A stretch of DNA of 64,000 nt from Clostridioides difficile ATCC 9689 = DSM 1296 (GTDB lineage: Bacteria; Bacillota; Clostridia; Peptostreptococcales; Peptostreptococcaceae). Position 1 is the first letter of the stretch, and each line of letters starts with the position of its first letter. The stretch covers positions 2,480,001 to 2,544,000 of the forward strand of contig NZ_CP011968.1 in the NCBI RefSeq assembly GCF_001077535.1, given 5' to 3'. Below the pieces are notes generated by a model, which saw only the letters and a program-made list of their open reading frames with translations, had not been told where the DNA came from and searched no databases. The translations under genes were made by a program, and so were the position numbers. This document shows positions 7,527-47,185 of this stretch, one piece after another.

Positions 7527-7570
7527 ATTGCCACCTCTTTTTTATTTATTTGCTTTATGTTTATATCTTA

Positions 7571-7692: not shown

Positions 7693-9471
7693 CTAATTAA
7701 ATAAATTTACAAATTTTTCAAAACTACTATTTTCACATATACTTATAACTTTTGCTATAGAATCTACTCTTTTATATATTTTTGAAAATATTACTTCATA
7801 ATCTAATATTTTATCTTTATCAAGGGCTAACATTATTATTAAACGAACATCTGATATTTCCCAAGAAATAGGCTTCTTTAATATACCAATTGCTATTTTA
7901 TTATCAAAAATTTTTCCAATAGCTCCATGTGGTATAGTTACCATATTCCCTATTTCTGTTGTTGCTATTTTTTCTCTCTCAAAGTAAGATTTTTTCATAT
8001 CCTCATCTATATAGCCCTTTTGTACAAGTTTACTTGCCATAAAATCTATAACTTCTTCTTTCCTTTTAAACACCAAATCAGTAAAAAACAATTCACTATC
8101 AAACAGGCTTTTTATATCTAAATCTAGGTATATATTTCCTGTTTCTATATATTTTTCAATTAATCTAATTTCTTTCTCACTTAAAATTGGAGATATATTT
8201 ATTACTGGCACATCTCCTACTTCAATAGGAACAGTAGATATTACAAAATCAACATCTATAACTTTTATATATTCAACTAAGTATGAAGGAATAATCTTTA
8301 GTATTTCTAATTTTTCCTTAAATATATTCTCTAATTTAGCTTTTATTAACATTGATGTGCCTATGCCTGAAGTACAAACTATTATAGTTTTGAAAACCTT
8401 ATCTTTATTATTATAAGATGCTCTTTCAACTGCTCCTCCTATATGTAGGGCTATGTTTGCAACTTCATCTTCATTAATTTCTATCTTCAAATCTTTTTCT
8501 ATTGTCTTTTTAGCTATATTAGCTAGTTCAAAAGCAAATGGATATTTTATTTTTATATCTTGAGCCATTATAGGTGATTGATTTATACCTAACTTTATTT
8601 TTTTACATAAACTACTAATATGCTTATATAAAAACTCTTCAAATACCTTATCATTACTTATATCTATTGATGTAGCTAATTTTAAATTTTTACAAAATGT
8701 TTTTATTGAATTTATTATAATTTCTTTGTTTTGTTCATTTTCTAAAATTGAGCTTCTTTTGCTCCTATAATTTTCTATATAATTCTCTATAAATTCTTTT
8801 TCATTATACTTATGTCTGCTTAACATAACTAATATATTATTTAACACACTCTTAAATTCTATATCAGTTAATACCAATCCATTTTCATTTAATATGTCTA
8901 ATAATAATTTTTTTATTAATAGTTTTCTTTCCTTTATATCATCATTTAAAAAATCATTTAAACTCAATTGATTATCTCTCTTATTGCTTAAGTCAACTAT
9001 ACAATTTAATATCTTATCTTCACTTTCCAAAACACATATACCTTGTTTATGCTTAGATTTAACTGATATTGAATACTTTTCCAATATTCTTTTTACTTCT
9101 TTTAAATCATTTTTTACTGTTGAAACACTTACATACATAGAATCGGCTAAATCTTCAAGTTTTATAGTATTTTTTTCTTCATTACTTAAGGTTAATATTT
9201 TTCTGATTATATATTCTACTCTATCTACATCATCATAGAGATTGCTATTTAGATTTACCTCATCAAAACTTCCTTCTAGTTTATAACCAACTCCTCTTAT
9301 TGACAAAATTTTACCATTTCTAAGTTGTTTATTAATATCCTTTATTTCATTTTGTATAGTTTTTGAAGAACATCCTATCTCTTGACTTAAGGCAATACCA
9401 CTAATTGTATCTTTTGAATTTAACAATATTTTTATTATATTTATCTGTCTTGCTGTTATATTTAAACTCAT
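7693..9471 (-). CDS. PRD-domain transcriptional activator (MtlR/LicR type), probable fructose operon regulator
   Basis: 592 residues. N-terminal winged helix-turn-helix segments (about 1-65 and a second about 90-160, with VSVSTVKNDLKEVKRIL) are followed by two PTS regulation domains (about 170-400). An EIIB-like domain with TIIVCTSGIGTSMLIK (phosphorylatable Cys) comes next, then an EIIA-like C-terminus with TTEIGNMVTIPHGAIG (His). This is the architecture of MtlR/LicR activators, whose activity is set by PTS-dependent phosphorylation. Its position directly upstream of fruK-fruABC, on the same strand but with its own terminator, suggests it controls that operon; this is inference. ATG start after GGTGAG. 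The tyrosine phosphatase gene lies 11 bases upstream on the same strand. Confidence 0.88.
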   Translation of the reverse strand: MSLNITARQINIIKILLNSKDTISGIALSQEIGCSSKTIQNEIKDINKQLRNGKILSIRGVGYKLEGSFDEVNLNSNLYDDVDRVEYIIRKILTLSNEEKNTIKLEDLADSMYVSVSTVKNDLKEVKRILEKYSISVKSKHKQGICVLESEDKILNCIVDLSNKRDNQLSLNDFLNDDIKERKLLIKKLLLDILNENGLVLTDIEFKSVLNNILVMLSRHKYNEKEFIENYIENYRSKRSSILENEQNKEIIINSIKTFCKNLKLATSIDISNDKVFEEFLYKHISSLCKKIKLGINQSPIMAQDIKIKYPFAFELANIAKKTIEKDLKIEINEDEVANIALHIGGAVERASYNNKDKVFKTIIVCTSGIGTSMLIKAKLENIFKEKLEILKIIPSYLVEYIKVIDVDFVISTVPIEVGDVPVINISPILSEKEIRLIEKYIETGNIYLDLDIKSLFDSELFFTDLVFKRKEEVIDFMASKLVQKGYIDEDMKKSYFEREKIATTEIGNMVTIPHGAIGKIFDNKIAIGILKKPISWEISDVRLIIMLALDKDKILDYEVIFSKIYKRVDSIAKVISICENSSFEKFVNLFN

Positions 9472-15544: not shown

Positions 15545-15705
15545 ATAGAAGAGTTGCTATATAGCACACCGAAGGAGTAACACTCTCAGGTACTTTTAAA
15601 AGTAGGACTGTAAAATTTACGGAACTCTGGAGAGACCCATTATGGGCGCCGAAGGGGCAAGGCTTTTATGCTCAATCTCTCAGGCAAAAGGACAGGGATT
15701 ATCTA
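15545..15705 (+). ncRNA. Tandem glycine riboswitch
   Basis: Two consecutive aptamers are visible. The first has CACCGAAGGAGTAAC, then CTCTCAGGTAC and AGGACTGT. The second has GGAGAGACC, GCGCCGAAGGGGCAAGG, then CTCTCAGGCAAAAGGACAGG. The paired CCGAAGG and CTCTCAGG motifs with a short linker are diagnostic of the cooperative two-aptamer glycine riboswitch. It precedes an alanine/glycine symporter, and a terminator lies between the aptamers and the gene, so it probably controls transcription read-through. Confidence 0.95.
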
Positions 15706-38029: not shown

Positions 38030-38515
38030 TTTTGAATCCACATAGTTAATCTAAAACACAATTATTAATTGTTTTATTATTGAAATCACAGCAATTTACA
38101 TTCCATATAGTTAATCTAAAATGTACCCTGCTAAATTTAATTTATACCGTTGTAGCCGATTTACATTCCATATAGTTAATCTAAAACAAGCATATACACA
38201 TGTCAGAAGATATTTATAAAAGGATTTTACATTCCATATAGTTAATCTAAAACAAGACTTAACACAGTAACTAAACTGTACATAATTGGTTTTACATTCC
38301 ATATAGTTAATCTAAAACGATATAATAATGAAACCTTTTTTTAAACTTATTTTCTTTTTTACATTCCATATAGTTAATCTAAAACGACAGCGAACAAGAG
38401 GTTTGGGAGGATGAAAAAAGTTTTTACATTCCATATAGTTAATCTAAAACAAATTTTGTAGTAAATTTCTTCATAGCGTCAAAAATTTTTACATTCCATA
38501 TAGTTAATCTAAAAC
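38030..38515 (-). CRISPR. CRISPR array, 8 repeats and 7 spacers, no cas genes nearby
   Basis: A 28-bp repeat (minus strand: starts GTTTTAGATT, ends GGAATGTAAA) occurs at 38030, 38095, 38160, 38226, 38291, 38358, 38423 and 38488. Spacers are 37, 37, 38, 37, 39, 37 and 37 bp and all different. The leftmost unit (38030-38057) has several changes and the second has one end change (T for C), as at a trailer end. The array is therefore read on the minus strand from a leader at its right. The repeat resembles the type I-B repeats of C. difficile. No cas gene lies in the window, so it must depend on Cas proteins encoded elsewhere. Confidence 0.97.
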
Positions 38516-42180: not shown

Positions 42181-42551
42181 TTTCAAATTCTTAAAATATT
42201 CTTCTAATAAATTTAAAATATCACCATCTACTTCATCATCCTTACTACATAGTGCTGACATTAAACTTAATATTGAATTTTTATGTGTATTCTTTAAAAA
42301 TTCTTTTGTTTAAAATCTCTGATATTATTTTTTTTACTAATACATTATAGTGTGTACACTTATCTATTTTCTCCGCTTCTAAAAACTCTCTTCTTTAGTA
42401 ATCTTTTTAATACTGTAAATATAGTTGTATCTTTCCATTCATATTTTTGTTCCATAGACTTGGTGATTTCTCTTGATATTAATACCTTTTCTGATTCCCA
42501 AATATATCTCATAACTTTTAATTCCGCTTCTGGTAATTTACTAATTTTCAT
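42181..42551 (-). pseudogene. Decayed blaI-like gene (copy B)
   Basis: The first 50 or so codons match the intact gene at 33473-33847 (MKISKLPEAELKVMRYIWES). A frameshift in the LKRL segment and stops in the second half then break it. Clearly a pseudogene of the same repressor. Confidence 0.8.
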
Positions 42552-42655
42552 AGTATACATTCCTTTACCAATTTATGTATATGTTAAATTCTGTATCAAT
42601 AAAGTTTTACAAACAAAAGAATTAAGGTAAATAATTACATTCGATTTTTACTATA

Positions 42656-43030
42656 TCATTCTTTTAAGTTTCTATAATACTCATCTAATAGGTCTAACTT
42701 CTCTTTACTTACATTTTTATGTGTAGTGGTAAGTGAACGCATTATTTTTATGCTTTTACTAGATTTTAGTACCTTTTTCTTAAAAGTATAATATTCTTTA
42801 CTATCTATTATTTTATAATGAGATTGAGAATTTATAATATATCTAGCCAAATACCTTTTAGCAACTAGCCTTTTTAGTAGTATTTTTATTGTACTTTTAT
42901 GCCATCCATAAATCTGTTTTATTTCTTTTACAATTTCTTTTTTAGGCATTAGAGTGTCTTTTTTCCATAAATACTCCATTACTATTAATTCTGCTCTTAA
43001 TAATTTTTCTATTAATATTTCTTCTTTCAA
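42656..43030 (-). CDS. BlaI-family repressor paralogue
   Basis: 124 residues with the BlaI/MecI winged-helix pattern: LLRAELIVMEYLWKKDTLMPKKEIVKEIKQ, then TIKILLKRLVAKRYLARY and a basic C-terminal part ending LLDEYYRNLKE. TTG start behind AAGGAAGTG. Only its last codons survive in copy A near 33950-33985. No BlaR1-like partner is nearby. It is more basic than the other BlaI-like protein, and target genes are unknown; the pilin gene lies 0.8 kb away on the opposite strand. Confidence 0.75.
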   Translation of the reverse strand: MKEEILIEKLLRAELIVMEYLWKKDTLMPKKEIVKEIKQIYGWHKSTIKILLKRLVAKRYLARYIINSQSHYKIIDSKEYYTFKKKVLKSSKSIKIMRSLTTTHKNVSKEKLDLLDEYYRNLKE

Positions 43031-43248
43031 TTTATGTCACTTCCTTAATTCTTCTAACTTAAGTTAATAATAGGAGCTTTTTAAGACAAAAACTAGAGGT
43101 AAGTTTTACCAAATATTCTACATATTTAGTCTGTTTTTTTGAATGTAAAATAATATTCATATGTATAAATTTGTTTAATTTACAAACAATGCTACCAAAC
43201 AATAAATAGCTCTATTGTATTATTTTAGTTGTAGAATAGCACTAAATC
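43031..43248. other. Divergent region between the BlaI paralogue and the riboswitch relic
   Basis: AT-rich region of about 220 bases that should hold the promoter of the BlaI paralogue and of the pilA3 leader. No gene seen. Confidence 0.4.
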
Positions 43249-43335
43249 GTTAGAATCAAAGAGATTTAGTAGCACAAAGCTATATAGGCTAATGCTTATA
43301 AAATAAATTATAAGTTATGTTAACAAGTTACTAAA
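43249..43335 (+). ncRNA. Degenerate c-di-GMP-I riboswitch relic
   Basis: Aligned to the intact aptamer at 46451-46527, the core GACGCAAAGC has become TAGCACAAAGC, and the 3' motif TCAGCCAGTTGCC has become TTAACAAGTTACTA. The loop GCTTATAAAATAA is kept. Conserved binding-core bases are lost, so ligand binding is doubtful. Confidence 0.6.
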
Positions 43336-43394
43336 AGCATATTTTATTTTTGTTTTTATGAAAGTTTTTTAGGTATGTAATAATATATATCTTT

Positions 43395-43562
43395 TAAAAT
43401 ATGTATTCATGTATACATATTTTGACTTATTATACTGATAGTTCATATAATTATTTTGATTTTATAGATACACAGTTAGATGATTTTATACTAGAGCATA
43501 AAAAAATGTAGTATAATCTTGTTTATATCAAGTTATGGTATTGGTAAGTAAGTATAATTAAA
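43395..43562 (+). pseudogene. Decayed copy of the 58-codon riboswitch-linked ORF
   Basis: About 160 bases align with the intact small gene at 46584-46760, including a long identical block (ATAGATACACAGTTAGATGA) and the shared 3' end GGTATTGGTAAGTAAGTATA. Start codon and frame are lost through deletions and substitutions. Confidence 0.7.
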
Positions 43563-43833
43563 TAGACATTATTTTCTGAGTCCTCTTTTTATTTTCATCT
43601 GCTTTTAAATAATATTATTGACATTGATATGACTGTAGTTTTCTTTATTTTAATCCATTTCTTATATCTTTTCTAACAAGAAATGTCATTTTAAATCATT
43701 TCCATAAATTGTAAAATAATAGTATATTTGTCATAGAAAGTGATTTTTTTGTCTATATATGGTAAAATATAGAAAGTAGAAATCAACAAAATAAAAATTT
43801 ATATATTATTAATTTTATATGGAGGGGAAATAA

Positions 43834-44322
43834 ATGAAAAATAAAAAAGGATTTACTCTAGTGGAATTATTAGTAGTAATTGCTATAATAGGAATATTGG
43901 CAATAGTAGCACTTCCAGCATTATTTAAAAATATAGAAAAAGCAAAGATAGCTAAACTTGAAGCTGATATAAGTGCAATAAAAAGTGCGTCTCTTAGCTA
44001 CTATGCAGATGAATCAAAATATACTGAAGGAAACATAATATGGTGGACTAAAAAAGATGGAAAAATAACAGTAAACTCTGGTATTGGTGATGAAGACCCT
44101 TTGGCACATAAAATAGAAAATTTAGGCATGCCTTATAATGGTTCGTACACTTTAGTGTCATCTAATGGTAGTGAAGAATACTTAGAATTAAACATAATTA
44201 TAGATGGAGAAATAAGTAAAAGTGGTCTAGATAAATTAGAAGAAGATTATGGTAGTTCAATAACAATACCAAATGATAAAAATATGATAATAACTTTTTT
44301 ATCTAATAAATCAGACAATTAA
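43834..44322 (+). CDS. pilA3: Type IV pilin (major-pilin-like)
   Basis: 162 residues. A class III signal: the short basic leader MKNKKG is cleaved before Phe in GFTLVELLVVIAIIGILA, with Glu5 present, followed by the hydrophobic N-terminal helix. The soluble head runs from about 40 and is rich in Ser/Gly/Asp. ATG start behind TGGAGGGG. It needs the prepilin peptidase and assembly genes encoded elsewhere. Gene context agrees with the pilin known as pilA3 in C. difficile (symbol from memory of gene order). It is preceded by a decayed c-di-GMP riboswitch and small ORF, and followed by a terminator. Confidence 0.88.
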   Translation: MKNKKGFTLVELLVVIAIIGILAIVALPALFKNIEKAKIAKLEADISAIKSASLSYYADESKYTEGNIIWWTKKDGKITVNSGIGDEDPLAHKIENLGMPYNGSYTLVSSNGSEEYLELNIIIDGEISKSGLDKLEEDYGSSITIPNDKNMIITFLSNKSDN

Positions 44323-46272: not shown

Positions 46273-46420
46273 TTAAAAATGTGTTTTAAATACAAACTTA
46301 AATTCAATTTTTAAGTCACTCCTGACAGAGGGGCTTTTTATTTTTTCAGATAATTTAACGTTCATATATAAATTTATTAATTTTTCAGCTAGATATGTTG
46401 AATAATAACTAATTCTATTG
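46273..46420 (-). pseudogene. Remnant of a type I toxin-antitoxin locus
   Basis: On the minus strand a frame without a proper start reads TYLAEKLINLYMNVK, then KSPSVRSDLKIEFKF, and ends at 46273. The KxKSxSxxSDLKI pattern matches the C-terminal half of the intact toxin at 39899-40051. On the plus strand the antitoxin-type terminator AAGTCACTC...GGGGCTTTTT is partly kept (about 46311-46340). The hydrophobic helix and ribosome binding site are gone. Confidence 0.5.
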
Positions 46421-46450
46421 TATTATTAATCTGTAGAATAAAACTAAATC

Positions 46451-46527
46451 GGCAAAACTAGAGAAATTTAGTGACGCAAAGCTATAGGGACTAACGCTTA
46501 TAAAATAAGTTATGTCAGCCAGTTGCC
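46451..46527 (+). ncRNA. c-di-GMP-I (GEMM) riboswitch
   Basis: The stem GGCAA (46451-46455) / TTGCC (46523-46527) encloses a GAGAAA loop helix, the conserved GTGACGCAAAGC, then GGGACTAA and GTCAGCCAGTTGCC. This is the class I c-di-GMP aptamer with its tetraloop and receptor elements in place. A weak A/T-rich hairpin followed by GTTTTT directly after it (about 46528-46556) may be the terminator. It precedes a 58-codon gene. Confidence 0.9.
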
Positions 46528-46583
46528 AAAAAGATATTTTCTTTTTGTTTTTCATGAAAGTTTTTTAGGGGGATAAATACATT

Positions 46584-46760
46584 ATGTTTAGAGATAAAAT
46601 GGATAAATGTACACATATGTTAACTGCTTATATTGGTAGTTCATATGATTATTGTGATTTTATAGATACACAGTTAGATGATTTTATATTAGAGTACGGA
46701 GAAAAAGTTGTGGAATCTTGCTTGCATCAAGTGATGGTATTGGTAAGTAAGTATAATTAG
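46584..46760 (+). CDS. 58-residue protein under a c-di-GMP riboswitch, unknown function
   Basis: 58 residues: MFRDKMDKCTHMLTAYIGSS, then an acidic stretch YDYCDFIDTQLDDFILEYGE and a C-terminal helix CLHQVMVLVSKYN. Soluble, mostly helical, with three Cys. The ribosome binding site TAGGGGG lies 10 bases before the ATG. It is 57 bases downstream of the aptamer. A decayed paralogue with the same arrangement lies upstream of pilA3. Both its signal and its conservation argue that it is translated; no known family is recognised. Confidence 0.65.
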   Translation: MFRDKMDKCTHMLTAYIGSSYDYCDFIDTQLDDFILEYGEKVVESCLHQVMVLVSKYN

Positions 46761-46984
46761 ACAGATTTTTTTCTAGAAAACCCTTTTTAGTTTTATCTAC
46801 ATTTACATTAATATATTGGTAATATAAAATGTTTAAATTTATTTTCATATTAAGAATAAATAAAAATGTTAACTAAAAATTATAATTAAATAGACATTTA
46901 TGTTAATCTATGATACAATAGTATTTGTGGTAATACACAAGTAAATCAAGTATATCTTGATATAGGTTAATAGGAGTATTTTTA

Positions 46985-47185
46985 ATGAATAATGGAATAG
47001 TAAAATGGTTTAATAATGAAAAAGGATTTGGATTTATATCAATGGAAAGTGGAGATGACGTATTTGCTCATTTCTCAGCTATACAAACTTCAGGATTTAA
47101 ATCATTAGAAGAAGGTCAAAAAGTAAGCTTTGATATAGTTAAAGGCGCTAGAGGTCCTCAAGCAGAAAATATAACTATATTATAA
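46985..47185 (+). CDS. Cold-shock domain protein
   Basis: 66 residues, single [21 protein letters not shown] contains the RNP1 motif (KGFGFI) and DVFAHFSAI the RNP2 motif. Binds single-stranded RNA or DNA in the cytoplasm. ATG start behind AATAGGAG. Its 5' region is only about 220 bases after the small riboswitch gene, so read-through from there is possible. Ends in a strong terminator. Confidence 0.95.

What the first reader, a model, noticed from the sequence alone, without database searches (positions are those of the whole stretch)
46451..46760. c-di-GMP-I riboswitch controlling an unrecognised 58-codon gene
A complete class I c-di-GMP aptamer is followed 57 bases later by a clean short gene with a strong ribosome binding site. 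The 58-residue product matches no family I know. It is not a downstream large gene's leader: the next gene, a cold-shock protein, starts 220 bases further on. A second-messenger-controlled small protein in a pilin and mobile-element region could be a new effector of the motile/sessile switch.
Basis: partly seen in the sequence, partly recalled or inferred. Interest (0 to 1): 0.8.

Follow-up and report, generated by a model that had tools for sequence, protein, structure and literature searches.

The report
Riboswitch-controlled cousin of sporulation brake
A known c-di-GMP riboswitch sits in front of a 58-residue protein gene that belongs to a many-copy family found only in Clostridioides in our searches; one relative is published to slow spore formation when overproduced, so this copy is predicted to act likewise when c-di-GMP is low.

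Summary
In detail: a complete class I c-di-GMP aptamer (46441-46530), an intrinsic terminator, a ribosome binding site and a 58-codon ORF (46584-46760). It is not unrecognised. It matches Cdi1_9/CD2309 of C. difficile 630, a published OFF switch with a "hypothetical protein".

What is new here is what the protein is. It belongs to a family with 7-12 matches in each of 8 genomes of the genus and none in 63 other genomes of the bacterial family, under purifying selection (pooled pN/pS 0.18). All 34 intact riboswitch-type copies have an aptamer 41-56 nt upstream; 44 of 78 class I aptamers in these genomes precede a family member. Switchless relatives match two published genes of the RgaS-RgaR circuit: CD16671, whose overproduction lowers sporulation and which lies antisense to the sRNA SpoZ, and CD15111, a direct RgaR target. 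The leader of CD16671 keeps remains of the riboswitch leader, so its control likely passed from riboswitch to antisense RNA.

Best reading: CD2309 is a low-c-di-GMP member of a small-protein family that likely restrains sporulation genes. Function is inferred from one relative, its effect is modest, and the direction conflicts with the reported inhibition of sporulation by c-di-GMP.

The parts
46398..46426 (+). sigma-70-like promoter, TTGAAT, 17 nt, TATTAT
   Evidence: consensus scan, 9 of 12 (11 such sites found in the stretch against 8.3 in shuffles, so a weak test on its own); it places transcription start near 46433
46433..46448 (+). 5' end of the mRNA (predicted), GTAGAATAAAACTAAA, complementary to the 3' end
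   Evidence: duplex -26.0 kcal/mol, 0 of 1000 shuffles as low; 33 of 34 distinct A and 7 of 7 B copies scored with at most 2 of 200 shuffles as low (a further B copy, L128, was not scored because the search pattern missed its leader)
46441..46530 (+). c-di-GMP-I riboswitch aptamer (matches Cdi1_9)
   Evidence: Rfam RF01051, 76.7 bits, full length
46527..46552 (+). intrinsic terminator of the expression platform (OFF switch)
   Evidence: 8-bp hairpin followed by UUUUU, -6.7 kcal/mol; a terminator-like hairpin with T-rich tail in 31 of 31 distinct A leaders. The same lenient pattern also rings in all 8 B leaders, so it is a weak test by itself
46567..46572 (+). ribosome binding site AGGGGG
   Evidence: read from the sequence; the same letters stand before the intact A copies printed and the B, C and D copies printed, except L079 and L059 of C
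46584..46760 (+). 58-codon gene, matches CD2309 (CD630_23090)
   Evidence: purifying selection; predicted four short helices, pLDDT 89.5
46773..46800 (+). 3' end: short hairpin and T-run, ending in the arm complementary to the 5' end (TTTTAGTTTTATCTAC, 46785-46800)
43398..43558 (+). decayed second copy of the gene 3 kb upstream (frame broken, stop codons); homology to the L113 cassette runs from about 43013 to 43611

Best explanation
The window carries a class I c-di-GMP riboswitch and a 58-codon gene matching the published pair Cdi1_9/CD2309; the gene is a paralogue of the published sporulation inhibitor CD16671, and its protein likely restrains sporulation gene expression while c-di-GMP is low. 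When c-di-GMP rises, the aptamer would hold its closing stem, the terminator at 46527-46552 would form, and the gene would stay silent (shown by others for Cdi1_9 in strain 630, inferred here from the anatomy). When c-di-GMP is low, read-through makes a small, acidic protein (10 acidic, 5 Lys/Arg by count) that is predicted to fold into four short helices. It belongs to a family of about eight intact copies per genome with different controls: subfamily A by the riboswitch, B (matches CD16671) by the antisense RNA SpoZ, C (matches CD15111) by a promoter with RgaR-type boxes. B keeps remains of the riboswitch leader, so its control was likely handed from the riboswitch to an antisense RNA. Shown here: aptamer, terminator-like hairpin, family, selection, box positions, leader remains. 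Taken from papers: the OFF response and the CD16671 phenotype. Inferred: that CD2309 does what CD16671 does. The molecular partner is unknown; a protein-protein contact that dampens the sporulation sigma-factor programme is my guess.
For: Full aptamer and terminator. Published OFF behaviour of Cdi1_9: terminated 140-nt and full-length transcripts, repression by c-di-GMP (PMC3649979); RNA-seq -4.66 (PMC6200980). Of 80 family places in 8 genomes of the genus, A 34 of 34 intact have an aptamer 41-56 nt upstream, B 0 of 8, C/D 0 of 20. Identity of B with CD16671: 58 aa; RgaR double box on the opposite strand 404-411 nt downstream of the stop in 8 of 8 B loci, 0 of 44 A, 0 of 8 D (C not scanned); the box G residues at L117 7455 and 7476 fit the published -72/-51, which puts the SpoZ start at 7527 and its 528-nt end at 8054, just past the ORF start at 8032; B against L116 gives 79.9% nt and 81.0% aa, and the paper gives 80% and 81% for CD16671 against CD19903. 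CD2309 is 81.6% nt and 75.9% aa identical to B. CD16671 overproduction: sporulation down about 1.8-fold, sigE and sigG about 1.6-fold. Leader remains: 8 of 8 B leaders align to the window's leader better than all 200 shuffles each; the 9 of 12 C and 8 of 8 D leaders tested do not, L132 (3 of 200) the nearest; RF01051 finds no match at the B leaders up to E 10 in the four B loci searched.
Against: No test of CD2309's function was seen in the passages I read. CD16671's effect is modest, and deleting it alone did nothing. CRISPRi of CD15111 did not change sporulation. [quoted passage not shown] That paper also says none of the riboswitches appear to affect expression of sporulation-related genes, under conditions that do not favour sporulation. 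SpoZ had no clear effect on CD19903. In PMC6200980 the qRT-PCR value for 23090 was 0.31 of the control, but the text says that the falls of three genes were not significant, without naming them in what I saw. Of the two B alignments printed, the one from the own genome covers only the first part of the leader, upstream of the aptamer core; the one from L128 covers all of it. The own-genome C copy has no standard start codon. Fold searches give no informative match.
Confidence: 0.5

Rival explanations
1. CD2309 is a low-c-di-GMP effector of the motile state (surface, motility or metabolism) unrelated to sporulation; the CD16671 phenotype comes from unnatural overproduction. The protein would be made together with flagella and bind some motile-state target.
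For: Its switch has the same sign as that of the flagellar flgB operon (PMC6200980). Deleting CD16671 alone has no sporulation effect, and the overproduction effect is only 1.8-fold. CRISPRi of CD15111 has no effect.
Against: In the own-genome neighbourhoods listed I saw by eye no copy inside a motility operon; genes were not annotated systematically. Two separate family members (CD16671 through SpoZ, CD15111 directly) sit in the RgaR circuit, which promotes sporulation.
Confidence: 0.3
2. The family is accessory cargo of phages and other mobile DNA that spreads by duplication; the host uses are incidental.
For: 25 viral-contig loci encode it; phage genomes phiCD27 and phiC2 carry the promoter-riboswitch part, phiCD418 the promoter and part of the aptamer, while tblastn of the phage records finds no family member; a plasmid carries a C-type member; PHROGs has it; 18 of 80 genus places are broken.
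Against: B and D each fall into one synteny cluster and are under strong purifying selection (pN/pS 0.106 and 0.078). McKee et al. report Cdi-1-9 in all 54 complete genomes they examined.
Confidence: 0.12
3. The mRNA is the active part: it titrates SpoZ or another regulatory RNA, helped by its paired ends, and the protein matters little.
For: CD2309 mRNA shares a 27-nt and L116 (matches CD19903) a 46-nt perfect block with the strand that SpoZ is antisense to, against a maximum of 13 in 100 control pieces. The 5' and 3' mRNA ends are complementary.
Against: Strong codon constraint says that the protein is the selected product. SpoZ did not clearly change CD19903 levels. The shared blocks follow from homology; L114 shares only 14 nt.
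Confidence: 0.08

Closest known systems
Cdi1_9 riboswitch / CD2309 (CD630_23090) of C. difficile 630
   Same: Class I aptamer, 142 bp (143 here) to a 177-bp ORF, OFF switch
   Different: Nothing that I could see. The 630 record itself was not held here, so identity rests on coordinates and layout, and the OFF response was measured in 630.
CD16671, sporulation inhibitor antisense to SpoZ (PMC10602386)
   Same: 58 aa, 75.9% identical protein, same gene layout, remains of the same leader
   Different: CD16671 has lost the aptamer and is under the RgaR-driven antisense RNA; CD2309 has an aptamer, and no RgaR double box was found antisense to it.
CD19903, CD1424, CD33682, CD1981.2 (Cdi1_8, 10, 11, 6)
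   Same: Same cassette of promoter, aptamer, terminator and small gene; Soutourina et al. already noted 88-93% identity for Cdi1_8-11
   Different: Different loci; 84-97% protein identity to CD2309 for the matching loci L116, L114, L113, L115. McKee et al. detected no gene after Cdi1_6 and Cdi1_10; the places matching these, L115 and L114 here, have intact family genes.
CD15111, direct RgaR target
   Same: A member of the same family if L119 is that gene (56% identity to CD2309)
   Different: A VirR-like double box upstream instead of a riboswitch; no standard start codon in the own genome
Cdi1_4/Cdi1_5 upstream of antitoxins RCd11/RCd12 in prophages
   Same: Class I OFF switch; phage leaders related to the window's are in phiCD27 and phiC2
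   Different: No family gene found in the phage records; the published transcript runs into an antitoxin RNA instead

Membership tests
c-di-GMP-I riboswitch (RF01051) | full-length covariance-model match above gathering score | tested here: met
   76.7 bits against 35, positions 1-87 of 87
c-di-GMP-I riboswitch (RF01051) | responds to c-di-GMP | not testable with these tools
   published for Cdi1_9 in strain 630 (PMC3649979; PMC6200980)
OFF-type (terminator) riboswitch | intrinsic terminator between aptamer and gene | tested here: met
   window hairpin -6.7 kcal/mol; pattern in 31 of 31 distinct A leaders, but also in 8 of 8 B leaders
CD16671 family of small proteins | 58-60 aa with shared invariant residues | tested here: met
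   alignments; 75.9% aa identity to the B member of the same genome
CD16671 family of small proteins | RgaR-dependent antisense RNA across the gene, as for CD16671 itself | tested here: not met
   no double box antisense to any of 44 A loci, against 8 of 8 B loci. A regulatory feature of CD16671, not one that defines the protein family
CD16671 family of small proteins | overproduction lowers sporulation | not testable with these tools
   seen for CD16671 only
Spo0E-like phosphatases (PF09388) | match to the family profile | tested here: not met
   PF09388 has one place over its cut-off in the own genome, not at a family locus (4 genomes searched); no Pfam match for CD2309, none to PF09388 among 8 members
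YcaO C-terminal domain (best fold match) | significant structural match | tested here: inconclusive

The most novel reading that the evidence does not exclude
The chief job of class I c-di-GMP riboswitches in Clostridioides is to run one orphan family of small helical proteins that gate sporulation. The family is wired separately to c-di-GMP (riboswitch copies), to RgaS-RgaR (promoter boxes) and to an antisense RNA (SpoZ), so its pooled dose would be the point where the motile/sessile signal meets the spore decision. CD16671 is a former riboswitch gene whose aptamer decayed while an antisense RNA took over.
Probability: 0.33. Interest if true: 0.75.

Novelty: new member of a known kind. Interest (0 to 1): 0.52.

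Why it matters
How c-di-GMP acts on C. [quoted passage not shown] If the riboswitch-controlled "hypothetical proteins" are CD16671 paralogues that act alike, that statement needs revisiting. The copies would also offer redundancy as a reason why deleting CD16671 alone does nothing. Separately, the riboswitch remains in front of CD16671 look like one RNA control giving way to another on the same gene family.

Tried and rejected
Spo0E-like protein: the spacing of hydrophobic residues looked similar by eye, but the profile search does not support it. Fold: nothing usable in PDB or viral models; PDB by sequence gave nothing below E 0.8. Mobile cassette with terminal inverted repeats: homology blocks often end near the gene's own 3' end but start at many different points upstream; target-site duplications and empty sites were not tested, so I do not claim transposition. 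B nested inside A: the ORF tree puts it there, but an A clade without B is not rejected (p-AU 0.353), so the direction of the handover rests on the leader remains, not on the tree. Trans-pairing of SpoZ with CD2309 mRNA is possible on paper, unproven; PMC10602386 mentions two mRNAs bound to SpoZ in an Hfq RIL-seq study, and the main text of PMC10267692 gave no passage on them, so whether one is a family member stays open. D subfamily: one clear half-box at most, so RgaR control of D is not claimed.

Full report
What is in the window. Rfam finds a complete c-di-GMP-I aptamer at 46441-46530 (76.7 bits, full length). It is followed by an AT-rich intrinsic terminator at 46527-46552, AGGGGG at 46567-46572 and a 58-codon ORF at 46584-46760. 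A lenient hairpin-plus-T pattern rings in 31 of 31 distinct riboswitch-type leaders, but also in 8 of 8 leaders of the switchless subfamily B, so the pattern alone is weak. The next ORF, cold-shock-like, starts at 46985.

It is known. In strain 630, Cdi-1-9 starts at 2671809 and CD630_23090 runs from 2671951 to 2672127 (177 bp); in RNA-seq the gene fell 4.66-fold when c-di-GMP was raised (PMC6200980, passages and Table 1). By qRT-PCR it stood at 0.31 of the control; the text says that the falls of three genes were not significant and, in what I saw, does not name them. Soutourina et al. showed by Northern blot a terminated 140-nt and a full-length transcript for Cdi1_9/CD2309, with repression of the latter by c-di-GMP, and noted that the Cdi1_8, 9, 10 and 11 regions are 88-93% identical (PMC3649979, passages). 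A 2024 review lists CD2309 as a small hypothetical protein (PMC11477304, passages); a 2021 review lists it as a hypothetical protein (PMC8428550, passages). The 630 record was not held, so I match by coordinates and layout. The other class I aptamers of the own genome keep the order and rough spacing of the published list, which gives L115 = Cdi1_6, L116 = Cdi1_8, L114 = Cdi1_10, L113 = Cdi1_11 and L121 = Cdi1_7.

The protein family. A search of the own genome gives 13 rows at E up to 10, which are 11 copies, since a frameshifted copy at 317 kb and the decayed window copy appear in two pieces each. In the genus, 8 of 8 genomes have 7-12 matches each at E up to 0.01; in the bacterial family, 8 of 71 genomes, all of this genus. 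A profile search of 5.8 billion proteins returned 70 proteins; the names given by sources are Clostridioides, most have no name. Pfam and NCBIfam have nothing for it. PHROGs has it as phrog_9888, unknown function, matching 8 of 8 members given. Among fetched loci a script found 142 places (loci overlap, so places repeat), 120 of them intact, 75 distinct ORFs and 58 distinct proteins; 72 ORFs encoding at least 57 aa were used further, 3 shorter ones dropped. They fall into four subfamilies: A (riboswitch type, 58 aa), B (MFIGE...), C (VFKDK..., 60 aa) and D (MYKDK..., 60 aa).

Selection. Pooled pN/pS within subfamilies is A 0.178 (43 sequences, 903 pairs), B 0.106 (8), C 0.199 (13), D 0.078 (8). 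The pairs are not independent, but the values are far from 1. The gene is a real protein gene.

Which copies have the switch. I joined the 80 genus places with the 78 aptamers. Intact A-type: 34 of 34 have an aptamer 41-56 nt upstream (32 at 80% identity or more, 2 at 72-74%). The 8 others at 74-76% (B, one per genome): 0 of 8. C/D: 0 of 20. Broken copies: 10 of 18. "Intact" here means full-length or nearly so without a stop, which saw fetched loci only, one of the 34 (G002:C3) and the own-genome C copy lack a standard start codon. In all, 44 of 78 class I aptamers lie directly before a family member, intact or broken.

Who the switchless relatives are. Edwards et al. 2023 (PMC10602386; section 10 read in full; other passages) describe a 58-aa ORF, CD16671, lying antisense to SpoZ, an RgaR-activated RNA of 528-560 nt whose promoter has direct repeats with critical G residues at -51 and -72. 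In the own genome the B locus has such a double box on the opposite strand; its G residues at L117 7455 and 7476 both place the start at 7527, and 528 nt end at 8054, just past the B start codon at 8032. The box is present 404-411 nt downstream of the stop in 8 of 8 B loci, and in 0 of 44 A and 0 of 8 D loci; C was not scanned. The paper gives 80% nt and 81% aa identity between CD16671 and CD19903; B against L116 here gives 79.9% and 81.0%. B is therefore CD16671. C carries CCAGTTTT-type repeats upstream. Of 13 distinct C leaders, 7 have two strict 11-mers 21 bp apart, 2 more have one strict 11-mer and a CCAGTT half-site 21 bp away, 3 have one strict 11-mer only and 1 has none; the own-genome C locus, not in that count, has the double box. 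This fits CD15111, a small ORF with a VirR-like site and a direct RgaR target; its place in strain 630 was not checked against a sequence.

What CD16671 does. Ten-fold overproduction lowered sporulation about 1.8-fold and sigE and sigG about 1.6-fold; deletion alone had no effect. The authors wrote that CD19903 likely functions similarly but is under different control. The main text held has no occurrence of riboswitch, CD2309, CD1424 or CD33682, and c-di-GMP occurs only in the introduction and the reference list. My searches for these gene names found no held paper that joins the riboswitch-controlled group to CD16671, beyond that remark on CD19903; subscription papers are not searched.

Riboswitch remains before CD16671. 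All 8 B leaders align to the window's leader with scores above every one of 200 shuffles (61-114 against shuffle maxima of 29-37); of the 17 C and D leaders tested (9 of 12 C, 8 of 8 D) none does, L132 coming nearest with 3 of 200 shuffles as high. Of the two alignments printed, L128 runs the whole length from the promoter to beyond the aptamer, with the GACGC core lost, while L017 (own genome) covers only the first part, before the aptamer core. RF01051 gives no match at the leaders of the four B loci searched, even at E 10. Control by riboswitch has gone; the protein is conserved. The ORF tree places B among A, but a tree with A as one clade is not rejected (p-AU 0.353).

Phages and plasmids. 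25 viral-contig loci encode family members, often near contig ends, so some may be host flank. In phiCD27 and phiC2 the leader is present, in phiCD418 its first part, and tblastn of the phage records finds no family protein. A Clostridioides plasmid carries a C-type gene. PMC7699646 (passages) shows that the prophage switches Cdi1_4 and Cdi1_5 precede antitoxin RNAs.

Judgement. The riboswitch and its sign are settled by others and agree with the anatomy. The protein is real and belongs to the CD16671 family. That it restrains sporulation is an inference from one relative with a modest effect, and the direction sits awkwardly with the published inhibition of early sporulation by raised c-di-GMP (PMC8653836, passages). 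Low-c-di-GMP cells would be holding sporulation back by one route while high c-di-GMP does so by another. I give the sporulation reading about one in two.

Noticed in passing
window 46433-46448 and 46785-46800: The predicted 5' and 3' ends of the mRNA are complementary (duplex -26.0 kcal/mol, 0 of 1000 shuffles), also in 33 of 34 A and 7 of 7 B copies scored with at most 2 of 200 shuffles as low, B having lost the aptamer. Unexplained: fold-back, end protection or remains of inverted repeats.
   Followed up: partly
window 42360-43611: Two BlaI/CopY-like ORFs followed by a decayed riboswitch-gene cassette, then the pilin at 43834. phiC2, phiCD418 and the prophage-end locus L118 also have repressor-like genes beside the cassette or its leader (names of the window and L118 repressors by eye).
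   Followed up: partly
L121 around 8103 (G000 2765102): A riboswitch cassette whose gene stops matching after codon 31, where CRISPR-repeat-like sequence begins; matches the orphan Cdi1_7.
   Followed up: no
L117 14-769: A CRISPR array (RF01327 repeats) about 7 kb from the CD16671-matching gene.
   Followed up: no
L114 (G000 1535000-1551000): The copy matching CD1424 lies near ORFs that look like GGDEF/PAS proteins (by eye), probably the dccA region.
   Followed up: no
L118 8116-8253 (G000 317115): A frameshifted copy with an intact aptamer beside endolysin-like and repressor-like genes at what looks like a prophage end (by eye).
   Followed up: no
D subfamily upstream regions, e.g. L020: A conserved single CCAGTT half-site about 150 nt before D (8 of 8 leaders; strict 11-mer in 6); a weaker partner 20 nt away in the own genome. 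Possibly a distant RgaR-like site.
   Followed up: no
window 15617-15705 and 38159-38187: Glycine riboswitch aptamer (67 bits) and a single CRISPR-DR14 repeat match.
   Followed up: no
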